A DNA stretch of 63,259 bases, taken from the NCBI RefSeq assembly GCF_950100655.1, contig NZ_CATNLY010000006.1:640-63898 (forward strand), read 5' to 3'. Shown here one piece after another: positions 972 through 49,518 of the stretch. Position 1 is the first letter of the stretch; every line of letters begins with the position of its first letter. The notes beneath the pieces were generated by a model. That model saw nothing but the letters and a program-made list of their open reading frames with translations, searched no databases and was not told the origin of the DNA. The stretch comes from Pleomorphomonas sp. T1.2MG-36. GTDB taxonomy: Bacteria; Pseudomonadota; Alphaproteobacteria; Rhizobiales; Pleomorphomonadaceae. Position numbers and translations under genes: made by a program.

Positions 972-1373
972 TCACTCCCCCTCCTCCGCCAATCTCTTCC
1001 GTGCCCTCGTCAGCCTCTCCCCCAAACCTTCCAGCCCCTTCACCCGCACCGTCTCCTCGAACGCCTTCACCCCGATGTGCTTGCCGATCAGCTCCAGCCG
1101 TTTCAGCCGATCGCTCAGCCGCACCTTCTTCACGAACCCCACCTGCTCCCTGGCATTGCCGCGGCCCTCGAAGCGCTCCTCGATCTCCACGCCCTGGATG
1201 AGGCCCTGCCGCCACACCTCCGGCCATTCGTCCACCGGCTTCAGCCGCCCCTCGCCGTCGTAGAGGTCGGCGATGTCGGCGGTGGCTTCGTCGACGAGGC
1301 GGCCCAGCAGCCAGCCGGCATCCACCTTGCCGACGGCCGGATCGCCCTCACCCTTGTTCCCCTTGCGCGGCAC
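972..1373 (-). CDS. Terminase small subunit-like protein (lacks N-terminal HTH)
   Basis: The 133-residue product resembles the central and C-terminal part of phage terminase small subunits: a V-D-A-G-W-L-L-x-R-L segment, then a block on the pattern D-I-x-D-L-x-D-x-x-G-x-L-K-P-V-x-E-W-P near residues 33-50, then E-R-F-E-G-R-G and I-G-K-H-I-G-V-K-A-F near 95-105. The family normally begins with a helix-turn-helix DNA-recognition region, which is absent here, so this is either a shortened domesticated copy or a remnant. It starts at GTG three bases after the stop of the upstream gene on the same strand, so the two are probably co-transcribed and translationally coupled. No large terminase subunit or other phage gene lies nearby. 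The family assignment is fairly sure; the role is unknown. Confidence 0.7.
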   Translation of the reverse strand: MPRKGNKGEGDPAVGKVDAGWLLGRLVDEATADIADLYDGEGRLKPVDEWPEVWRQGLIQGVEIEERFEGRGNAREQVGFVKKVRLSDRLKRLELIGKHIGVKAFEETVRVKGLEGLGERLTRARKRLAEEGE

Positions 1374-1376
1374 GGA

Positions 1377-2435
1377 TCACTCCTCGTCTGTCTCGGCCAC
1401 CCTACCCTCGTCGGGTTTGCCGCCTTCATCGCCCCGGCCCAGCACCAGCTTGAAGCCGCGCTGATAGCCGGCCGCCTCGATGCGCACGCCCGAGCCCTCG
1501 ATCCGCTTCCGGAGCAAACACAGCTGCGTCTTGAAATACTTGCGCGCCGTCTCGTATTCCGGCCCGCCGTCGAAATCGTCGGCATACATCTCGCCGATGA
1601 TCGCCTCGCCGGTCACCGGCTTGCCCTTGCCGGCCCAGACGCGGACAAGGATCGCCTCTTGCTGCGGCGGCAGCTCGTAGGCGCGGGCGATCAGGTTGGG
1701 CGACAGCACGGGCGCCAGCCCGCCGCAGCACGGGCAGGTGACGCCCGTTTCCGCCTCCGGCACGGCCTCGGCCACCGCCGCCCCCCCCATCACCGGCGCA
1801 TCCGCGCCGAAGCCCGGCAATCGATCCCCCAGGCGGATGTTCTCGATGCGGTCGTCCAGCGTGTCGCCGTTCCTAGGCAGCAGCACGCGGTCGGTGCCGC
1901 CGAAGTGCCAGTTCCACACCAGATAGCGGCGCATGTAGCGGATCACGTTGGCCCGGCTGCCGCCCTGGATGGTCCAGATCGGCCCGTCGTCGATGGTCTT
2001 GCGGTAGAGCTCACCGCCCGCCTCCGGCCGCCGCCGACCCACCGGGTCGCGCCAGTAGAGCCGGCCGTTGTCGCGATAGTCGAACAGCGCTCTCGCGACC
2101 TCGCGGCTCATCTGCACGGCGGAAAACCAGGTGTTGGGCACGCCGCCGTCATCGAGGCGCGCCTCCACCGCATTGGCCGGCCCGGCCCGCCGCTTGCGCG
2201 CGGCGGCCGCCTTGGTCGCCACGGTGACGCCGGGCCCGGACACCCGCACCGCCGCCGCCCCCGCCTCGGCCTTGACGGCCTCCAGCAGACCATTCTCCGC
2301 CAGCGCCCGGTTCAACGGAAAGCGGACGTGCTCCATCCCCCGCCCGCCACCGGACGACCAACCGCCATCCCGCTCACGCTCGTACTCATCCGCACGCCCA
2401 CCGGCGCGCCTGTCAATCATCATGTCATCTGCCAT
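1377..2435 (-). CDS. Protein with degenerate HNH-like region, zinc motif and C-terminal winged helix
   Basis: I chose the ATG at 2435 because GGGAGAG sits 5-11 bases upstream; the frame stays open further upstream but without a ribosome site. The product is 352 residues. The middle contains LFDYRDNGRLYW and, later, NGDTLDDRIENIRL, a layout typical of HNH homing-type nucleases, but the expected His-Asn-His residues are not obvious, so it may bind DNA without cutting. A CPCCGG motif may form part of a zinc site. The C-terminal 90 residues (ELPPQQEAILVRVWAG through GYQRGFKLVL) look like an OmpR-type winged helix. It precedes the terminase-like gene, which suggests a small phage-derived module. 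I do not recognise a named family. Confidence 0.6.
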   Translation of the reverse strand: MADDMMIDRRAGGRADEYERERDGGWSSGGGRGMEHVRFPLNRALAENGLLEAVKAEAGAAAVRVSGPGVTVATKAAAARKRRAGPANAVEARLDDGGVPNTWFSAVQMSREVARALFDYRDNGRLYWRDPVGRRRPEAGGELYRKTIDDGPIWTIQGGSRANVIRYMRRYLVWNWHFGGTDRVLLPRNGDTLDDRIENIRLGDRLPGFGADAPVMGGAAVAEAVPEAETGVTCPCCGGLAPVLSPNLIARAYELPPQQEAILVRVWAGKGKPVTGEAIIGEMYADDFDGGPEYETARKYFKTQLCLLRKRIEGSGVRIEAAGYQRGFKLVLGRGDEGGKPDEGRVAETDEE

Positions 2436-3324
2436 GCCGGCTCTCCCGAAAAGAGCCGACGGGCGCGTCGTGGGGCAAGACATAGGTTGACGGCTAAAAG
2501 TTAACGACGGAAGGGAGGAAAAGGCGCGGGATTCCGGGCGTTCTCCGCCACGCCGCAGCCGCCAGCATCGCCAATCCGTTAACAGCCGAGGCGGAGTTGC
2601 GGCAGCCCCCCCTCTCCCTGATCCCTCTCCCACAAGGGGCGAGGGGACGCTTGGCTTTGCCGACCCATCATACGCGTTCCGCTTGATCCGGACTCATCCA
2701 GCTCAAGCGGGTTTCGGCCTGACCGGCCGGCGCCCGGTCGGGCGCTTCCGCTTCCCGTCAGGTTCCGGCCGAAAGGTCGAAACCCGACGGAAACGGTATC
2801 ACTTGGGCAAACCGAGCCTTCCAGCCATGGGTAGCCCCAAACCGCGTCCCCTCGCCCCTTGTGGGAGAGGAACCAGGGAGAGGGGTGAGACGCCGCTATC
2901 GCGCCCCGGCGCATCCCGTCATCACCGTCTACCCTTCACGTGAGTATAGGAAACGGGGTGTTGGGACGGAGATTCATTGCGACGGGGAGAAAGAAAATGA
3001 CTCGGAATCCGGGGTTTAGGAGAGAGGGGGGTGGAGACGGGACGGAATGAGCAAAGCTCTGTCATTGCAGCAAATGCTTATAGTCCCGTAAGAGGCAGAA
3101 GACTTACAGCCTATATAGCCCCTTGCTTCGCTCCGCTCCCAAATGGAAAGCGAGAGACGCTATGAACGAAGTAAGCGGACCTGCGCTCGAGCAAGTCCGC
3201 CACCATCCAACTACCTAATGGCCGGTCGGGCGCGCCCTGAACGCGAAACTCTCGCCTTTGAGTTGTCTTGGGGAAACAGTTGTGAAATGCTTCCTCGAAT
3301 CAAAACTAAAAAGAGGGAAGCGCC
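2436..3324. other. Non-coding gap with an inverted repeat pair and foreign-DNA boundary
   Basis: I see no gene here. Two inverted copies of a sequence reading CCTCTCCC...CACAAGGGGCGAGGGGAC lie at about 2619-2655 and 2850-2889, enclosing about 190 bases with further short inverted segments (TTCGGCCTGACC, GGTTCCGGCCGAAAGG). Base composition changes from GC-rich to AT-rich after about 3090, marking the start of the foreign islet. The ribosome site GAGGGAAG just before 3325 belongs to the next gene. GCCTATATAGCCCC near 3109 is a fragment of the composite intergenic repeat. Confidence 0.55.
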
Positions 3325-3741
3325 ATGGTTCGGAAGGCTTTTTTTGCTTATCCTGCAGCGCCAGCGGACTTGGCATCGACCATCAAAGCTGCCTGTGAGC
3401 GGACCCAAGGCAAGGCGCTGGATGTACTCGTTACAGGCTGGCCTCAAATGGAGGTCTTCGGCGACAGTATCGCCAAACAGGTGAGATCGAGTATTGACGC
3501 ATCTGACGTGCTAATTGCTGATATCACCGTTCCTAATCGCAACGTGTACTATGAGATAGGATATGCTGTTGGCCAAGGAAAACCTGTAGCCCCAGTGCTC
3601 AATGTTTCTTTCCAAGACGCCACAAAATACATCCAACTCGATGGTTTTTTTGACACTATTGCGTACCAGACATATGAGAACTCAAATCAATTACTAGATA
3701 TATTCAGAAAATTGCCCTCAACGAAACTGGTTGAGCTATAA
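3325..3741 (+). CDS. Nucleoside 2-deoxyribosyltransferase/TIR-like domain protein (5' part of an interrupted gene)
   Basis: The 138-residue product has the alternating strand-helix pattern of nucleoside deoxyribosyltransferase and TIR-like folds. DVLIADITVPNRN (61-73) is followed by VYYEIGYAVGQGKPV, where Glu77 sits where the catalytic Glu of these enzymes lies; such domains cleave N-glycosidic bonds of nucleosides or NAD. GAGGGAAG precedes the ATG. The frame ends at TAA 3739-3741, but the same frame then stays open to 5637, so this is probably the first domain of a single protein cut by a nonsense codon (see 3865-5637). Codon use is AT-rich compared with the neighbouring genes, suggesting horizontal transfer. 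The fold is a pattern-based assignment. Confidence 0.75.
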   Translation: MVRKAFFAYPAAPADLASTIKAACERTQGKALDVLVTGWPQMEVFGDSIAKQVRSSIDASDVLIADITVPNRNVYYEIGYAVGQGKPVAPVLNVSFQDATKYIQLDGFFDTIAYQTYENSNQLLDIFRKLPSTKLVEL

Positions 3742-3864
3742 TCAAAACAACTAAACACAACACAACCTTTATATTTAATAGACACGGTTAGGAAGACTGA
3801 TTTCCGCAATACAGTAATATCGGCGGTCAAGGATGCAAAGATTTTCTACAGAAGTTTTGACCCA

Positions 3865-5637
3865 ATGGAGACCTATAGGTTTTCGACAATAAATATAATT
3901 ATGGAGGTTTCCGCATCCTCAGGGGTACTAATACCTTTATTATCGGATAGTATCGACGATGCAGCCAGGCACAACCTAAGAGCCGCCTTCTTGGCGGGAC
4001 TTAGTCACGGCATGAATAAGAGAACAATGATCATTGAGTTCGGTACGCCGTCTAGTTCGCAACCGGCGGATTTTCGCGACCTTGTTGTCACGTTAAATAG
4101 CGAAACTGATATTTTTGAGAAAGTGAAGGAATTCTGCGGTTTGGCTCTGCTCGCTACTCAAGAGCCGCAACCCAAGCGGCGGCGTTCCGCGAGCAAGCTT
4201 CAAGCCTTGTCGTTGGGGGCGTCCGCAGCAGAAAATGAATTCCGGTTGCTTGAGAATTATTTCGTCGAAACCTCAGAGTATGTAAGGACTCTTCGCGGAG
4301 AGGTGTCGGTCGTATCAGGTCGAAAGGGTTCCGGGAAAACCGCGATATTCTTCATGGTCCGAGATGCAATCCGCTCGAAGAAGTTTACGTCTGTTACAGA
4401 CCTAAAGCCGGAATCTCATCAGCTAAGCCTTTTTAGGCAAGAGTTGCTCAAGCTTTTGGACATCGGCGTATTCGACCACACACTTGCGGCTTTTTGGTAT
4501 TTCGTTTTCCTTACTGAGATGCTCTTCACTATACAGAGAGAAAACAAGTATAAACTCCAGCACGACCCAAGCGCTTTATCCTCACTTTCAGATATTGAGG
4601 ACGTACTTCAGGAATTCGGCATAATTAACAGCGGAGACTTCACTGCTCGAATAAATAGACTAAGCAAAACGATTTTATTCGAAATTAGCTCAGCCAAGAC
4701 ACGTAACAAGCCGCTTTCACCCGAGAGCTTAACGAACATAGTTTTCAGAGGCGGCATCAACAAAATAAAACAGCTAATTATCAAAAATACAACACCAAAG
4801 ACAAGAATAGTTTTGCTGTTCGATAACATAGACCGAGGATGGCCAACTCAGGGCGTCGAAGAATTCGACGTACGAATGATTCGGCTTATGGTTGAGTCAC
4901 TCGAGAAAATTCGAAGAGACCTACATAATGCCGACAGAGACATGTTTAGTGTCGTTTTCCTAAGAAATGACATTTATGAGTTGCTTGTAGAACAAACGCC
5001 AGATCGAGGAAAAGTTGGACAGATACGAATTGACTGGAACGATCCAGTCAAGCTTAGAACCGTTATATTGAAACGCCTTCAAGCTTCTACGGCCAGAGAG
5101 GGCGATGCATTCTCATCTCTGTGGCTCGATTATTTCGCCCCCACCGTTGGAGGAGTCGATTCCTTTGAGTATTGCGTTTCCCACTGCCTGATGCGTCCGC
5201 GTTTCCTGCTTACCATAATTGAGAACGCAATCGCCAACGCGATAAATCGTAGTAATACCATCGCCTCTGAAGACGATATTGCGGACGCGGTGAAGCAACA
5301 CTCAAACTACTTAATTTCAGAATTTGGATTTGAAATTCGGGACGCATCTGGCCTTTCAGCGGATATACTTTTTGAACTCATTGGCCTCCCAGAGATTGTA
5401 TCGAAAGAGATGGTCTTGGAACGCTTCTCTGAGGGCGGGATCCCAAGGGATAAGCTTGAACACGCGTTTCAGTTGATGCTGTGGTATGGCGTAATAGGTT
5501 TTGTCAAGAAAGATGGTGATAACAAGTATATATACGACTATGACTATAGTATGAAACGGCTAGCAGCCGAGATGCGTCACATCGCCGGCGAGCCACAATA
5601 CTCCATAAACCCAGCATTAATGGCAGCAATAAAATAA
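3865..5637 (+). CDS. P-loop ATPase with N-terminal degenerate deoxyribosyltransferase-like domain (3' part of an interrupted gene)
   Basis: The 590-residue frame begins at the first ATG after the in-frame TAA at 3739, but translation of 3742-3864 is also open and reads like protein. Residues 10-58 (SGVLIPLLSDSIDDAA then NLRAAFLAGLSHG) parallel the DVLIADITVP/NVYYEIGYAVG block of the preceding frame but lack the catalytic Glu, so this looks like a second, inactive copy of that domain. Residues 152-160 GRKGSGKTA are a Walker A motif and 315-323 IVLLFDNID a Walker B. The rest fits the large P-loop ATPases sometimes labelled Sll1717 family. An NTPase joined to a nucleotide-hydrolase-like domain fits a phage-defence or stress ATPase; this is inference. 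A terminator follows directly. Confidence 0.8.
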   Translation: METYRFSTINIIMEVSASSGVLIPLLSDSIDDAARHNLRAAFLAGLSHGMNKRTMIIEFGTPSSSQPADFRDLVVTLNSETDIFEKVKEFCGLALLATQEPQPKRRRSASKLQALSLGASAAENEFRLLENYFVETSEYVRTLRGEVSVVSGRKGSGKTAIFFMVRDAIRSKKFTSVTDLKPESHQLSLFRQELLKLLDIGVFDHTLAAFWYFVFLTEMLFTIQRENKYKLQHDPSALSSLSDIEDVLQEFGIINSGDFTARINRLSKTILFEISSAKTRNKPLSPESLTNIVFRGGINKIKQLIIKNTTPKTRIVLLFDNIDRGWPTQGVEEFDVRMIRLMVESLEKIRRDLHNADRDMFSVVFLRNDIYELLVEQTPDRGKVGQIRIDWNDPVKLRTVILKRLQASTAREGDAFSSLWLDYFAPTVGGVDSFEYCVSHCLMRPRFLLTIIENAIANAINRSNTIASEDDIADAVKQHSNYLISEFGFEIRDASGLSADILFELIGLPEIVSKEMVLERFSEGGIPRDKLEHAFQLMLWYGVIGFVKKDGDNKYIYDYDYSMKRLAAEMRHIAGEPQYSINPALMAAIK

Positions 5638-5659
5638 AAAGGGGCCAAAGGCCCCTTTT
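5636..5659 (+). terminator. Rho-independent terminator of the ATPase gene
   Basis: AAAAGGGGCC, a three-base loop AAA, and GGCCCCTTTT form a ten-pair hairpin with a T run on the 3' side. It starts within the stop codon of the ATPase gene. Confidence 0.85.
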
Positions 5660-5854
5660 AGTCTGTTCAGGTCGGTAACTTCAGAGAAGATTACATAACG
5701 ATCCCCGATAAAGACTAGTTTAACTAACCACAAGCGCTATCGGCCAATGGCAATGAAAACAACATATCACGATCAAATAGGGTGTCAATTTGGGCGGTAG
5801 AGATAAACCCTTCAACCGGTTTTCGATTCGTTAACATTTAATTGAGAATACCCC

Positions 5855-7117
5855 TCACCTCCTCCGCCCCACCATCACCATCGCCACCGCATACACCGCC
5901 ACCACGCTCAGCCACACCGCGCCCGGCCACGTCCCTCTCACTACCGCGTAAAAGCTCGAAAAGCCCAGCGGCGCCACGATGGAAGCCAGGCTCAGCGCCG
6001 AGGCCAGCACGCCCTGGAACTGGCCCTGCTGGCTCTCGCTCACCTGCCGCGTCGCCATGGCTTGCAGGGCCGGCACGCCGAGGCCGCCGAGGGCGAACAG
6101 CGGCATGATGGCGAACACGATCCAGCCCTCCGTCGCGAAGGCCATGATGACGAGCGCCGCCATGGCGCCGAAAAGGCCGGTGAGGATGGCGGCGCGCTCG
6201 CCCAGCAGCGCCACCGCCGGCCCCGGCAGAAAGGCTTGCGCCAGCGTCTGGCAGACGCCGAAGGCGCCCAGCGACAGGCCGATCATCATGCCGTTCCAGC
6301 CGAACACGTCGCCGCCCCACAGCGCCCAGCTGGTGCCATAGGCCTCGCCGGTGGCCGACAGCAGGAAGAAGATGGCGATCAGCGGCCACAGGCTCTTCAC
6401 CTCGAACAGCCAGCCGAACGGCTTCAGCGGGTTCAGCGACGCGAGGTCGAGCTTTTCGTGGGCGCTTCCGCCCGAAAAGTTGCAGACTTTTCGGACCAAG
6501 CGGAAGCGAGAGAAGAAAGACCGGGAGCGCACCTCCGCTCCGTCAGGAGCGGCTGTCGCGACCGGCTCGCGGGATTCCGGCAGGAAGACGAGCGCCATCA
6601 GGAGGTTGACGCCGTTGAGCACGGCGGCGGCGATGAACGGCAGGCGTAACAAGTGGTCGCCCAGCGTGCCGCCCAGCACCGGCCCGACGATGAAGCCGAT
6701 GCCGAACATGGCGTTCATCAGCCCGAAGCGGCGGGCGCGCCTGTCGGCCTCGGTGATGTCGGTGATGTAGGCGGTGGCCACCGACACGTTGGCCGAGGTC
6801 AGCCCGGCGATCGCCCGGCCCAAGAGCAGCAGCGTCAGGCTGCCGGCGAAGGCGAGGAAGACGTAGTTGATGGCGGCGCCGGCGAGCGAGATCACCAGCA
6901 CCGGCCGCCGGCCGATCCGGTCGCTGAGCGAGCCCAGCAGCGGCGCGAAGGCGAACTGCACCGCCGCGTAGAGCGCGGTCATGATGCCGATATAGGGGGC
7001 GACGTTGCCGGCGTGCGTCACCTCGGCCAGCAGCGCCGGCAGGATGGGGAAGATGAGGCCGATGCCGACCGCGTCGAGCAGGATGGCCGCGTAGATGACG
7101 ATGAGAGGTCTGTTCAT
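5855..7117 (-). CDS. TCR/Tet-type MFS drug exporter
   Basis: A 420-residue major facilitator protein of the drug:H+ antiporter type (12 membrane helices expected). The loop motif GSLSDRIGRRPVL after helix 2 is the MFS motif A, and the N-terminus (LDAVGIGLIFPILPALL) is typical of the TetA-like subgroup. The ATG at 7117 is chosen because GGGAG lies just upstream; a longer frame has no such site. The central loop between helices 6 and 7 is longer than usual because a hairpin repeat (6463-6508) lies in frame within the coding sequence. No regulator gene sits beside it. Substrate unknown. Confidence 0.88.
   Translation of the reverse strand: MNRPLIVIYAAILLDAVGIGLIFPILPALLAEVTHAGNVAPYIGIMTALYAAVQFAFAPLLGSLSDRIGRRPVLVISLAGAAINYVFLAFAGSLTLLLLGRAIAGLTSANVSVATAYITDITEADRRARRFGLMNAMFGIGFIVGPVLGGTLGDHLLRLPFIAAAVLNGVNLLMALVFLPESREPVATAAPDGAEVRSRSFFSRFRLVRKVCNFSGGSAHEKLDLASLNPLKPFGWLFEVKSLWPLIAIFFLLSATGEAYGTSWALWGGDVFGWNGMMIGLSLGAFGVCQTLAQAFLPGPAVALLGERAAILTGLFGAMAALVIMAFATEGWIVFAIMPLFALGGLGVPALQAMATRQVSESQQGQFQGVLASALSLASIVAPLGFSSFYAVVRGTWPGAVWLSVVAVYAVAMVMVGRRR
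6463..6508. repeat. Palindromic element inserted in frame in the MFS gene
   Basis: Outer arms CGCTTCCG (6463-6470) and CGGAAGCG (6501-6508) enclose inner arms CCGAAAAGT (6472-6480) and ACTTTTCGG (6486-6494). On the minus strand it is translated within the extra residues around LVRKVCNFSGGSAHEKL in the central cytoplasmic loop of the exporter. Confidence 0.7.
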
Positions 7118-7616
7118 GGCGAAACTCCCGAGCACCATCCGACCGGAGCGCCGCGCGGCCCGATCGGATGATGCCGAATAGACCGGGGACCGCTGGTGGC
7201 GGATGCCCAGGCACAAGGCGCCAGACGCAACGCTGCGCATGGCGGACGGATGGAGCCTGATGGTTCAGGCGGTGATGTCTGGAAATCGCTGGTCGATCCG
7301 CATCGGATGGAAACGGACCGCTTGTGCCTGATCGCCTGGACGGGGAGTCGTCCACCTGTTTACTCCGCCAACGGGCGGATCAAGGGAAGCGATCGCTTTT
7401 CGCGATGGCGAAGGGATACGCCAAGGTTGGTGCGGAGGCAAGACGGAGAGGGGCGGTGCCGGGTGGCGTGGTGAACGAGGGGGCTATGGATTTCCCGCGC
7501 CTCTTTCTGGCTGGGATTCTCTGTCTGCGCGGGGGAGGACGGTTTGATGGGAAGGGAGCGTCACCTAGCAGTGGTGCGATGGTGGCGAAACGCTGAAATA
7601 CCATTTCATATCAATC
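7118..7616. other. Gap upstream of the MFS gene
   Basis: About 500 bases without a supported gene. Open frames on both strands lack recognisable motifs and ribosome sites. The segment next to 7118 should hold the exporter promoter, but I see no clear operator. Confidence 0.4.
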
Positions 7617-8232
7617 AACTGTCATCCCCGCGAAGGCGGGGACCTCAGGACAAGATCACTCCTCGGCCGATATCACGCTCCATGAATCACAGACGCCCTA
7701 TAGTTCCCTCACACCCTTTCCGGCCTGAGGTCCTGGCCTTCGCCAGGATGACGGCTTGATGGGGGCGGGAGCTTAGTTTCGCAGCGGCGCGATGGTGGGC
7801 GACGCACTGAAATACCGTTTCATATCAATCAACTGTCATCCCCGCGAAGGCGGGGACCTCAGGACGAGATCGCTCCTCGGCCCATATCAAGCTCCATGAA
7901 ACAGGGTGCCCTATAGATCCCCCTCGCCCTTTCCGGCCTGAGGTCCTGGCCTTCGCCAGGATGACGGTTTGATGGGGGCGGGCGCCCTATAGCTCCCCCT
8001 CGCCTCTTCCTGCACGAGGTCCTCGCCTGCGCAAGGATGACAATTTATATAGAGGGAACAGCGGGATAAGCGGCGCGCGAGCTCATCCAGCACATCGCCT
8101 GCCTCAATAGCAAGCGACAACCCCGCATCCCGCGAACAACGCTCTATCTATTTGTTTTATATCCATTTCCTGTCATCCCCGCGAAGGCGGGGATCTCAGG
8201 ACGAGATCGCTCCCCGGCCGATATCACGCCCC
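7617..8232. repeat. Array of composite palindromic repeats
   Basis: Three left arms (GTCATCCCCGCGAAGGCGG then GGACCTCAGGACGAG) start near 7620, 7835 and 8170. Matching right arms (CCTGAGGTCCTGGCCTTCG then CCAGGATGAC) end near 7752 and 7965, and a third right arm (GAGGTCCTCGCCTGCG) ends near 8041. The linker with ATCCAGCACATCGCCTGCC and CTCTATCTATTTGTTT recurs at 9215, 9555, 14770 and 15030. No gene is supported here. Confidence 0.85.
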
Positions 8233-8298
8233 CCTCACCCCAATTTTCGTCCCTACACAAATGTTGCCGCGCATCCTTTTTTGTAGTAACAAAAATTC

Positions 8299-8568
8299 AT
8301 GCAGATCGAGTTCGATCCCGTCAAGCGCGCCACCAATCTGGCAAAGCATCAGATCGACCTCGCCGAGGCCGAACGGGTGTTCGAGGGCGACACGCTGACG
8401 ATCGAGGACGATCGCTTCGACTACGGCGAACAGCGCTTCATCACCATCGGCCGTCTTGCCGGACGCATGATGGTGATCGTCTGGACCCCGCGCGGCGCGG
8501 CCCGTCGCATCATCTCCTTGAGGAAAGCCAATGACCGCGAACAGGCCGCCTATTCCCCCCGGCTTTGA
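8299..8568 (+). CDS. brnT: BrnT family toxin
   Basis: The 89-residue product matches the BrnT ribonuclease toxin family (RelE-like fold): the start M-x-I-E-F-D-P-x-K-x-x-x-N-x-x-K-H is the family hallmark, followed by FEGDTLTIED and a C-terminal R-I-I-S-L-R-K-A block. BrnT cuts RNA and blocks translation until bound by BrnA. No strong Shine-Dalgarno precedes the ATG. The upstream bases hold an imperfect inverted repeat (CTACACAAA and TTTTTTGTAG) that could be the operator of the pair. The antitoxin gene overlaps its 3' end by 38 bases, the usual toxin-first BrnTA order. Confidence 0.93.
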   Translation: MQIEFDPVKRATNLAKHQIDLAEAERVFEGDTLTIEDDRFDYGEQRFITIGRLAGRMMVIVWTPRGAARRIISLRKANDREQAAYSPRL

Positions 8569-8785
8569 TCCCGACGAAGCGCCCGACCTCAGCGCCCCCG
8601 AGTGGCAGGAGAAGTTTGCCACCGCCAAGGTGCAGCGCGGCCGGCCGAAAGCGGAAAGCCGCAAGGTATCCACCACCATTCGCCTCGATGCCGACGTGAT
8701 CGCCGAGTTCCGCGCCAGCGGCGAGGGCTGGCAGTCACGCATCAACACGGCGCTGCGGGAATGGCTGGAAAAGAAGCGGGCGTAG
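8531..8785 (+). CDS. brnA: BrnA family antitoxin
   Basis: An 84-residue protein with the BrnA pattern: an N-terminal arm, then K-V-S-T-T-I-R-L-D-A-D-V-I-A (a ribbon-helix-helix strand and helix near 48-61), and the closing segment W-Q-S-R-I-N-T-A-L-R-E-W-L. It should bind and neutralise BrnT and repress the shared promoter. It starts inside the toxin gene (38-base overlap), so translation is coupled. A palindrome of the nested repeat family (8815-8838) lies 30 bases after its stop and may act as a transcript end. Confidence 0.93.
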   Translation: MTANRPPIPPGFDPDEAPDLSAPEWQEKFATAKVQRGRPKAESRKVSTTIRLDADVIAEFRASGEGWQSRINTALREWLEKKRA

Positions 8786-8814
8786 GAGGACGCTCTTTTC
8801 TGCCGGAGATCCAC

Positions 8815-8838
8815 CTTGAACTCGCGTGCGAGTTCAAG
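8815..8838. repeat. Nested 24-bp palindrome after brnA
   Basis: CTTGAACTCGCG followed by its near-exact inverse TGCGAGTTCAAG. It is a variant of the 24-bp palindrome found inside several composite repeats; both arms carry the matching change AAC/GTT relative to the common AAT/ATT form. Confidence 0.75.
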
Positions 8839-8935
8839 TGACCTGCGCAGAGGAGAACAGCTTAATGGGGAAGGGAGCGTCATTTCGCAGTGGCGCGATG
8901 GGTGGCACGGCGCTGAAACACCGTTTCATATCAAT

Positions 8936-9775
8936 CAACTGTCATCCCCGCGAAGGCCGCTTGCATTCGCGGGCGAATGCAAGGTGGACCTCAGGACGAG
9001 AAGGTGCATCGGCCGATATCAAGCTCTATGAAGCATGGGGCGCCCTATATGTCTCTCTCGCCCTTTCCGGCCTGAGGTCCTGGCCTTCGCCAGGAGGACG
9101 GTTTGATGGGGGCGGGCGCCCTATAGATCCCCCTCGCCTCTTCCTGCACGAGGTCCTCGCCTGCGCAAGGATGACAATTTATATAGAGGGAACAGCGGGA
9201 TAAGCGGCGCGCGAGCTCATCCAGCACATCGCCTGCCTCAATAGCAAGCGACAACCCCGCATCCCACGAACAACGCTCTATCTATTTGTTTCATATCCAT
9301 TTCCTGTCATCCCCGCGAAGGCGGGGACCTCAGGACGAGAAGATGCCTCGGCCCATATCAAGCTCCATGAACCACGGACGCCCTATAGTTCCCTCACGCC
9401 CTTTCCGGCCTGAGGTCCTGGCCTTCGCCAGGATGACAGCTTGATGTGAGGGAGCCCTATAGTTCCCTCTCGCCTCTTTCTGGCTGAGGTCCTCGCCTGC
9501 GCAAGGATGACAATTTATATAGATGGAACAGCGGGATAAGCGGCGCGCGAACTCATCCAGCACATCGCCTGCCTCAATAGCAAGCGACAACCCCGCACCC
9601 CACGCACAACGCTCTATCTATTTGTTTCATATCCATTTCCTGTCATCCCCGCGAAGGCGGGGACCTCAGGACGAGAAGATGCCTCGGCCGATATCGGGCT
9701 CCTTGATCCACGGACGCCCTATATGTCTCCCTCGCCCTTTTCCGGCCTGAGGTCCTGGCCGATATCACGTTCCAT
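8936..9775. repeat. Array of composite palindromic repeats
   Basis: Left arms start near 8939, 9305 and 9642; right arms end near 9097, 9177, 9440 and 9510, with a truncated one near 9760. The first copy carries the nested palindrome CTTGCATTCGCG with its inverse at 8960-8983. Copies share long linkers with the 8.0-8.2 kb array (ATCCAGCACATCGCCTGCC), so this looks like segmental duplication of repeat-linker blocks of about 340 bases. No gene is supported. Confidence 0.85.
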
Positions 9776-48681: not shown

Positions 48682-49518
48682 GTGCCGAGTTCGACCTACG
48701 ATACAATCGTGAAAGCCGCAGCTGCTTTTCTTCAAGAAACAGGAAGTACGGGGCCGGACTCATCGAAGAGCAACAAGCAAATCGTTGCGGCAATTCGTTC
48801 CAAAATTCAGAATGGCGAAATAAGCGTTGATGCGGCGGACGGAACTATGCTGTCCTATCTTAGCAACGCTGCAAATACTGATGTGGAGTCAAACATCGTC
48901 AGCGGAGGCCCGCGCGGAGGATATTGGTACAGCCAGTCTAAACCGCAAATTACAGAGGCTAAGCCTGCCGACGAAGAGAAGATAAAACCGGAAAAAGGCG
49001 CCGAAATAACCATCCTAGAAAAGGACTTGTACCCCTTGATGGAGCTTTGGCTCCAGCAGAAAGGTTACAAATCTAAGGACATGTCCAACGTAAAGAGTGG
49101 TGGACGCTGGGGTAATCCAGATATCATTGGGGCGGAACGCGTCGAGTTATTCGGAGCGGTTGAGATTGACCTAGCGTCCTGCGAGGTGAAACTGGCAGAA
49201 CAAAACTGGGAGCAGGTAATTTTTGAGGCAATCTCACACAAGAGATTCGCGAACAGATCATGGTTTTGCTACAGACTCCCGCAAGAGCAGGTCATACCAA
49301 AGGGAATGGCTTATTATGCTGAGCGCTACAGAGTCGGCGTCGTGCAAATAGTTCTGACCGACGAAGAACTTATTAACCTAAAGTCAGGAAAGGCAAAGCC
49401 CCTAGACCTTATCGACAATGTTATAGAGAAAATACCAGCCCTATATGATTATGTCCCCCTTCGAGAACAAAGAGACCTTGTGGACAGAACCGGTATTTCT
49501 CTAACAGTTTCATTTTAG
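48682..49518 (+). CDS. Putative HTH/PD-(D/E)XK nuclease-like protein
   Basis: The GTG at 48682 follows AAAGGAT. The 278-residue product has an N-terminal helix-rich part (IVKAAAAFLQETGSTGPDSS, residues about 8-85) that resembles a winged-helix or HARE-type module, then a second domain with GGRWGNPDIIG (Pro146-Asp147) and LASCEVKLAE (Glu168-Val-Lys170). The spacing Asp-21-Glu-x-Lys and the following ANRSWFCYRLP fit a PD-(D/E)XK restriction-endonuclease fold. DNA is AT-rich compared with the neighbours, so it was probably acquired. Likely a defence or repair nuclease; the named family is not recognised. Confidence 0.6.
   Translation: MPSSTYDTIVKAAAAFLQETGSTGPDSSKSNKQIVAAIRSKIQNGEISVDAADGTMLSYLSNAANTDVESNIVSGGPRGGYWYSQSKPQITEAKPADEEKIKPEKGAEITILEKDLYPLMELWLQQKGYKSKDMSNVKSGGRWGNPDIIGAERVELFGAVEIDLASCEVKLAEQNWEQVIFEAISHKRFANRSWFCYRLPQEQVIPKGMAYYAERYRVGVVQIVLTDEELINLKSGKAKPLDLIDNVIEKIPALYDYVPLREQRDLVDRTGISLTVSF

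What the first reader, a model, noticed from the sequence alone, without database searches (positions are those of the whole stretch)
3325..5637. One in-frame TAA splits a single 770-codon NDT/TIR-like ATPase gene
Frames 3325-3741 and 3865-5637 are in the same reading frame. After TAA 3739-3741 the 41 codons up to the next ATG stay open and read like protein (DTVRKTDFRNTVISAVKD, KIFYRSFDP), completing the first strands of a second deoxyribosyltransferase-like domain that the ATG at 3865 would cut in half. So the natural product is probably one protein with an active-looking first domain, a degenerate second domain and a P-loop ATPase. The TAA may be a recent nonsense mutation, a sequencing error, or a readthrough site that regulates fusion of effector and ATPase.
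Basis: partly seen in the sequence, partly recalled or inferred. Interest (0 to 1): 0.72.

Follow-up and report, generated by a model that had tools for sequence, protein, structure and literature searches.

The report
Stop codon in an immune-like ATPase gene
A gene that in other bacteria makes one immune-receptor-like protein is cut here by a single, probably recent stop codon, so this strain most likely carries a broken phage-defence gene.

Summary
Frames 3325-3741 and 3865-5637 share one reading frame, and the 41 codons 3742-3864 are conserved coding sequence. Homologues are mostly single proteins of about 770 residues. In 44 of 44 aligned full-length homologues the TAA column holds a sense residue. 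No intact two-gene form split at this point was found.

Best reading: a recent nonsense mutation, or less likely a sequencing error, in one gene of NCBIfam's 'P-loop ATPase, Sll1717 family'. Readthrough is unlikely: the stop is TAA followed by T, none of 43 detected tRNAs reads UAA, and the aligned homologues have no stop there.

The intact protein looks NLR-like: an NDT head with an invariant glutamate, a second TIR/NDT-fold domain without it, and an Orc1/Cdc6- and STAND-like ATPase. The gene is a low-GC insert at a spot where sister Pleomorphomonas genomes carry other sequence, including restriction-modification, beta/Cll, RmrA-like and Abi-like genes. Phage defence is therefore inferred, not shown.

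The stop itself is ordinary. The family's architecture and the variable cargo spot are the more interesting parts.

The parts
3312..3317 (+). Shine-Dalgarno-like AGAGGG, 7 nt before ATG 3325
   Evidence: by eye nothing comparable before ATG 3865 or ATG 4027
3325..3741 (+). First ORF: NDT (nucleoside 2-deoxyribosyltransferase/DNPH1-like) head, 138 aa, ended by the premature TAA
   Evidence: PF05014 E 1.8e-6, 28.5 bits against cut-off 28.8; DNPH1/Rcl chains E 7e-4
3553..3555 (+). Candidate catalytic glutamate (residue 77, NVYYE motif)
   Evidence: invariant in 44 of 44 homologues; lies opposite the YELG glutamate of Rcl; codon checked
3739..3741 (+). Premature TAA, in the linker between domains 1 and 2, followed by T
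   Evidence: sense residue in 44 of 44 full-length homologues; the corresponding residue 140 of the P0010 model ends helix 136-140 between the two domains
3742..4197 (+). Second TIR/NDT-fold domain, without the glutamate; its first 41 codons have no start codon
3865..5637 (+). Second ORF as read from the first downstream ATG, 590 aa; the database entry P0001 starts at ATG 4027 instead, 536 aa
4213..5628 (+). P-loop ATPase of the Sll1717 family, Orc1/Cdc6- and STAND-like fold
   Evidence: NF047389 277.9 bits, cut-off 75, residues 158-629 of the piece 3742-5634; fold of an intact homologue
4318..4341 (+). Walker A motif GRKGSGKT
5638..5659 (+). Terminator-like inverted repeat plus T run just after the gene
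   Evidence: read; not scored with the terminator scan
3055..5850 (.). Low-GC insert (41-54% in 500-base windows, mostly below 50%) between breakpoints shared with sister genomes
2921..3051 (.). Conserved non-coding stretch at the left edge of the variable spot, once in this genome (edges approximate)
972..2633 (-). Left flank: terminase small subunit-like (972-1373) and HNH endonuclease-like (1377-2633) genes
   Evidence: shared with sister genomes
5855..7240 (-). Right flank: MFS transporter gene; a match in all 14 genus genomes searched, in 10 besides the window's at 73% identity or more in the best segment

Best explanation
The locus is one gene, not two. In its intact form it makes a single protein of about 770 residues: an N-terminal NDT head with the glutamate expected of a nucleoside/NAD glycohydrolase, a second TIR/NDT-fold domain without that glutamate, and a STAND/Orc1-Cdc6-like ATPase. 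By analogy with NLR-type receptors, the ATPase would assemble on infection and switch on the head, which would destroy NAD or nucleotides and stop the infected cell (inferred, not shown). Here a recent single-codon change has put TAA into the linker after the head. Translation should end with a free 138-residue head. The ATPase part lacks a good start and would at best be made weakly, without its complete second domain. The system is therefore most likely inactive: a fresh pseudogene at a cargo spot that often holds defence genes. Shown: the interruption, intact relatives, domain folds (predicted models), the variable spot. Inferred: defence role, enzymatic activity, loss of function.
For: Homologues align across the junction; by my count 109 of the 119 others listed are 768-796 aa long. 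The stop column is a sense residue in 44 of 44 full-length homologues, and the window changes only 1 of 164 otherwise invariant columns, inside the 0-4 range of the intact ones, so little decay has followed. About 4.2% of single changes in 3742-5634 would create a further stop, and none is present; at 95% that fits up to about 70 neutral substitutions. The only Shine-Dalgarno-like site seen is at ATG 3325. The stop lies in the inter-domain linker. The gene is the only copy in its genome and is absent from 13 of 13 same-genus genomes. Of 8 sister stretches with both flanks, 7 hold 1.5-3.5 kb of other sequence at the spot; proteins from 5 of these 7 were typed and 4 of the 5 have a PADLOC match. 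A 5'-truncated copy in an alphaproteobacterial MAG (L025) suggests that loss of this gene recurs.
Against: No read data: a base-calling or assembly error cannot be excluded, and the genome is rated 2.56% contaminated. The head alone is nearly a whole domain and could keep some activity. No phage-defence phenotype is known to me for this family; the nearest antiphage model in NCBIfam, DS41_1, scores 33 bits against a cut-off of 370. A published survey argues that many in-frame stops in bacterial genes are tolerated (PMC7918605, abstract).
Confidence: 0.78

Rival explanations
1. The TAA is a sequencing or assembly error and the gene is intact in the living strain.
For: The rest of the frame is undamaged: 1 of 164 invariant columns changed, no other stop. 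Only one contig is listed for this gene.
Against: The genome is rated 99.99% complete, 2.56% contaminated, in 54 contigs. Single-base substitution errors are rare in good short-read assemblies (own knowledge). Reads were not available.
Confidence: 0.12
2. The TAA is a programmed readthrough or recoding site that sets the dose of fused protein.
For: The frame stays open and conserved after the stop. In-frame stops are reported to be tolerated in some bacterial genes (PMC7918605, abstract).
Against: No stop at this column in 44 of 44 homologues. TAA was the tightest stop in E. coli reporters, mean readthrough 0.01-0.05% of wild type, and a T right after the stop improved termination (PMC11126739, passages); here the context is TAA-T. 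None of the 43 tRNA genes found reads UAA. No Rfam element at E up to 0.1 in 2400-6000.
Confidence: 0.03
3. The two halves are a working two-gene system: a free NDT head and a separately translated ATPase acting in trans.
For: The stop falls in the linker, so the head is nearly complete. One metagenome protein, P0103, starts 13 residues before the matching column, with unrelated first residues.
Against: ATG 3865 would cut the first three elements of domain 2, and neither 3865 nor 4027 has a Shine-Dalgarno-like site by eye. The search for free-standing heads found 4 besides the window's: 3 run into unrelated tails on contigs of at most 2.7 kb, none at this exact point but one (P0123) close before it, and 1 is marked partial.
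Confidence: 0.05
4. The two frames are unrelated neighbouring genes that share a frame by chance.
For: They are listed apart in the protein database (P0121 and P0001).
Against: Full-length single-protein homologues span both halves, and the junction itself is conserved.
Confidence: 0.01

Closest known systems
P-loop ATPase, Sll1717 family (NCBIfam NF047389)
   Same: 277.9 bits over the whole model; several homologues at 66-70% identity carry this name
   Different: the window's copy is interrupted after the head
DNPH1/Rcl 2'-deoxynucleoside 5'-phosphate N-hydrolase and NDT enzymes (PF05014)
   Different: fused to a TIR-fold domain and an ATPase; the second domain lacks the glutamate
TIR-NLR receptors such as RPS4, RUN1, RPP1
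   Different: two TIR/NDT-fold domains in tandem; no LRR or other C-terminal sensor was recognised
Avs5 (SIR2-STAND) antiphage protein
   Same: NAD-type head plus STAND ATPase; listed by Foldseek at rank 12, E 1.7e-3
   Different: different head; weak match with low TM-score (0.19)
Swarozyc / DUF4062 TIR-like NADases
   Same: TIR/NDT-related head with a candidate catalytic Glu; beside a NACHT ATPase in human homologues (PMC13174449, passages)
   Different: a different domain family; it did not appear among the family matches seen here
NDT effectors of retrons
   Same: NDT-like effector used in defence (PMC12548924, one passage)
   Different: no reverse transcriptase gene was noticed beside the window's gene (not searched for by name)

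Membership tests
P-loop ATPase, Sll1717 family | score above the curated NCBIfam cut-off (75 bits) | tested here: met
   277.9 bits
P-loop ATPase, Sll1717 family | one uninterrupted protein of about 770 aa, as in most relatives (not a rule of the NCBIfam model) | tested here: not met
   TAA at 3739-3741 in the window; the ATPase part alone meets the model, so it is filed as an interrupted member
NDT (PF05014) | first domain reaches the Pfam gathering score | tested here: inconclusive
   28.5 against 28.8 bits; the database's own precomputed Pfam lists it for P0121
NDT/DNPH1 hydrolase | conserved catalytic-type glutamate in domain 1 | tested here: met
   44 of 44 homologues and the window; alignment to Rcl. 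That this Glu is catalytic in Rcl is recalled
TIR/NDT fold | fold of domain 2 | tested here: met
TIR NADase | catalytic glutamate in domain 2 | tested here: not met
   helix 214-231 has no acidic residue in 33 of 45 sequences and one in 12, none at a conserved column; the helix is matched to that of TIRs by position, not by a residue-level structure alignment
STAND/NLR ATPase | NB-ARC/Orc1-Cdc6-type ATPase fold with Walker motifs | tested here: met
STAND/NLR receptor | C-terminal sensor and ligand-driven oligomerisation | not testable with these tools
   needs biochemistry
DS41_1 antiphage protein | NCBIfam cut-off 370 bits | tested here: not met
   33 bits
Nonsense pseudogene | in-frame stop where intact homologues have a sense codon | tested here: met
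Nonsense pseudogene | loss of function or relaxed selection | not testable with these tools
   no close sister copy was found

The most novel reading that the evidence does not exclude
The family behind this gene is an uncharacterised bacterial NLR-like immune receptor with two TIR/NDT-fold domains in tandem, a catalytic head and a pseudo-TIR spacer, on a STAND/Orc1-Cdc6-like ATPase. It travels in defence cargo spots and prophages, and is lost by point mutation when not needed. The window would be a natural experiment in which the head is freed from its ATPase without killing the cell, implying that the head is silent unless the ATPase assembles it.
Probability: 0.45. Interest if true: 0.6.

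Novelty: new member of a known kind. Interest (0 to 1): 0.33.

Why it matters
It shows that the two database proteins P0121 and P0001 are pieces of one interrupted gene. It gives a testable architecture for a family whose name 'Sll1717' occurs in no paper of the held library. The genus-wide spot, with different cargo between the same flanks, is a place to look for more defence systems.

Tried and rejected
Chance shared frame: rejected by the homologues. Two-gene arrangement as the norm: rejected. ATPase-only ancestor: L025 (identical DNA to L059) looked like one, but its frame has no start near the match and P0010 finds no head in the locus, so I read it as a truncated copy. Profile comparison of domain 1 with domain 2 gave no support (hhalign probability 1.8%, E 0.028); the likeness of domain 2 to the NDT/TIR fold rests on the structure model. 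Rfam at 2400-6000: nothing at E up to 0.1. Phage records: no match at E up to 1e-10. Plasmid records: 14 of 72,556 at E up to 1e-20, all under 60% identity. Neither fold list shows a compact match to all three domains, which does not show that none exists. Suppressor tRNA: none of 43, but the set is not complete. Papers: Pleomorphomonas with phage, 2 listed, neither on this subject by its abstract; pseudogenes in defence islands, 12 of 15 listed, none used. Not done: dN/dS, because the nearest relative is only 70% identical in protein; a Foldseek search of the domain 2 model (not completed); a model of domain 1 alone.

Full report
What was checked. Frames 3325-3741 and 3865-5637 lie in one reading frame, with a single TAA at 3739-3741 and no in-frame ATG, GTG or TTG from 3742 to 3864. 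The five other frames over the same stretch hold 22 to 53 stops each.

One gene, not two. A search with 3742-5634 gave 636 proteins at E up to 0.001 among 8000 scored candidates; of the 120 listed, one (P0001) is the window's own. The best others are 70% identical over 100% of the query; by my count 109 of the 119 are 768-796 aa long, and many that bear a name are called 'P-loop ATPase, Sll1717 family'. Thirteen of the 41 codons between the TAA and ATG 3865 are invariant among 29 aligned sequences. In an alignment of the window with 44 homologues, chosen for full length from those 119, the TAA column holds tyrosine, histidine or phenylalanine in 44 of 44; because short ones were left out, this says what intact copies carry, not how often copies are broken. 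Searching for free-standing heads gave four besides the window's own: three on contigs of at most 2.7 kb that run into unrelated tails, one of them (P0123) shortly before the linker, and one marked partial. In named genomes, 17 of 19 loci show one open frame through both halves; one (L025) is a copy without its 5' part and one (L035) is only a short match. In two wider draws, 3 of 385 and 7 of 397 genomes had a match at E up to 1e-30, the window's genome counted in each; the only in-frame stop reported was the window's TAA, and one match (G536, identical DNA to L025 where both are held) lacks the first 259 residues. One metagenome protein (P0103, 643 aa) starts 13 residues before the same column with unrelated residues. 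Its contig could not be read, so it may be another broken or miscalled copy.

How recent. Leaving each sequence out in turn, the window differs at 1 of 164 columns that are otherwise invariant; the 44 homologues differ at 0 to 4. About 4.2% of all single changes in 3742-5634 would make a stop, so the absence of a second one fits up to about 70 neutral substitutions at 95%. This is rough: it assumes equal rates. The window's identity to six relatives is similar in head, second domain and ATPase to that of two intact comparison proteins.

Why not readthrough. The stop is TAA followed by T. In a reporter library in E. coli, TAA was the least read-through stop (means of 0.01-0.05% of wild type over temperatures and media), and T right after the stop lowered readthrough (PMC11126739, passages seen). 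All 43 tRNA genes found in the genome were typed and none reads UAA; the set lacks some expected tRNAs, isoleucine for one. No aligned homologue has a stop there. A published survey holds that in-frame stops can be tolerated in bacteria (PMC7918605, abstract), so some residual product cannot be excluded.

Where it sits. The nearest named relatives of a neighbouring protein are Pleomorphomonas. The insert has 41-54% GC in a 65% GC window. The gene is absent from 13 of 13 same-genus genomes. Stretches from 10 of those 13 were fetched; 8 show both flanks, one of them (G003) with only a short left match at its contig end, and 2 show the right flank only. Between the matched flank ends lie 0.4 to 3.5 kb of sequence unlike the window's, in one case (G011) only 434 bases. 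G008 and G012 carry a protein that looks like G002's RmrA-like one by eye, so three of the seven share one type. The left edge is a conserved non-coding stretch, about 2921-3051, beside HNH- and terminase-small-subunit-like genes; the right edge is the end of an MFS gene. No integrase gene was noticed in the interval, but none was searched for. An intact homologue of Agrobacterium cavarae (P0014/L017) lies on DNA identical over 7256 bases to a 45 kb IMG/VR contig, next to an endolysin-like gene, so a prophage carries the family. Of ten neighbour proteins of other homologues typed, three are defence-like, a PRTase-CE/reverse transcriptase pair (L023) and a type I specificity subunit (L028); the other seven are not. 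A 33% identical relative sits on a conjugative Rhizobium plasmid with two AAA ATPase genes beside it.

Mechanism, with marks. Shown: one interrupted gene, intact relatives, conserved glutamate and Walker motifs, predicted folds, variable cargo spot. Inferred: the intact protein works as an infection-triggered receptor whose ATPase assembles the heads into an active NAD- or nucleotide-cleaving enzyme; the window's copy makes only the head in quantity and is inactive. That a free head is tolerated would suggest that the head needs assembly, but expression here is unknown.

Verdict. An ordinary, recent loss of a probable defence gene, correctly spotted. The family architecture and the cargo spot deserve more interest than the stop. 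The name Sll1717 was in 0 papers of the held library; searches for NDT plus STAND plus phage defence (3 retron papers) and KAP NTPase plus deoxyribosyltransferase (none) listed no paper on this family by title and abstract. Most subscription papers are not held, so this does not prove absence from print.

Noticed in passing
window 3055-5850 and loci L036-L043: Variable cargo spot in Pleomorphomonas between an HNH/terminase-like gene pair and an MFS gene: 8 of 10 fetched sister stretches share both flanks, 7 of the 8 with 1.5-3.5 kb of cargo unlike the window's; 4 of the 5 typed have a PADLOC match, and three of the seven seem to share one type.
   Followed up: partly
window 2921-3051: Conserved non-coding stretch with two GGGACGGA copies (2963, 3039) at the left edge of the spot, once in the genome, no Rfam match.
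   Followed up: partly
window 2670-2802: Interspersed repeat of about 130 bases with roughly 20 further full or partial copies in the genome.
   Followed up: no
window 7600-9760: Dense, partly tandem and inverted repeats shared with sister genomes, around a BrnT/BrnA toxin-antitoxin pair at 8299-8785.
   Followed up: no
L107 899-3265: Intact homologue on a 45 kb viral contig beside endolysin-like and antitoxin-like genes; DNA identical to that of Agrobacterium cavarae L017.
   Followed up: partly
L025 4001-5533 (identical DNA to L059): 5'-truncated copy of the gene in an alphaproteobacterial MAG, an independent case of decay.
   Followed up: partly
L039 4367-6038: Cargo of G005 at the same spot: two proteins with no Pfam, PADLOC or NCBIfam match at E up to 0.01, candidates for an undescribed system.
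   Followed up: no
window 48682-49518: Another ORF with low third-position GC (0.50) in this GC-rich window, no Pfam match; perhaps a second recent insert.
   Followed up: no
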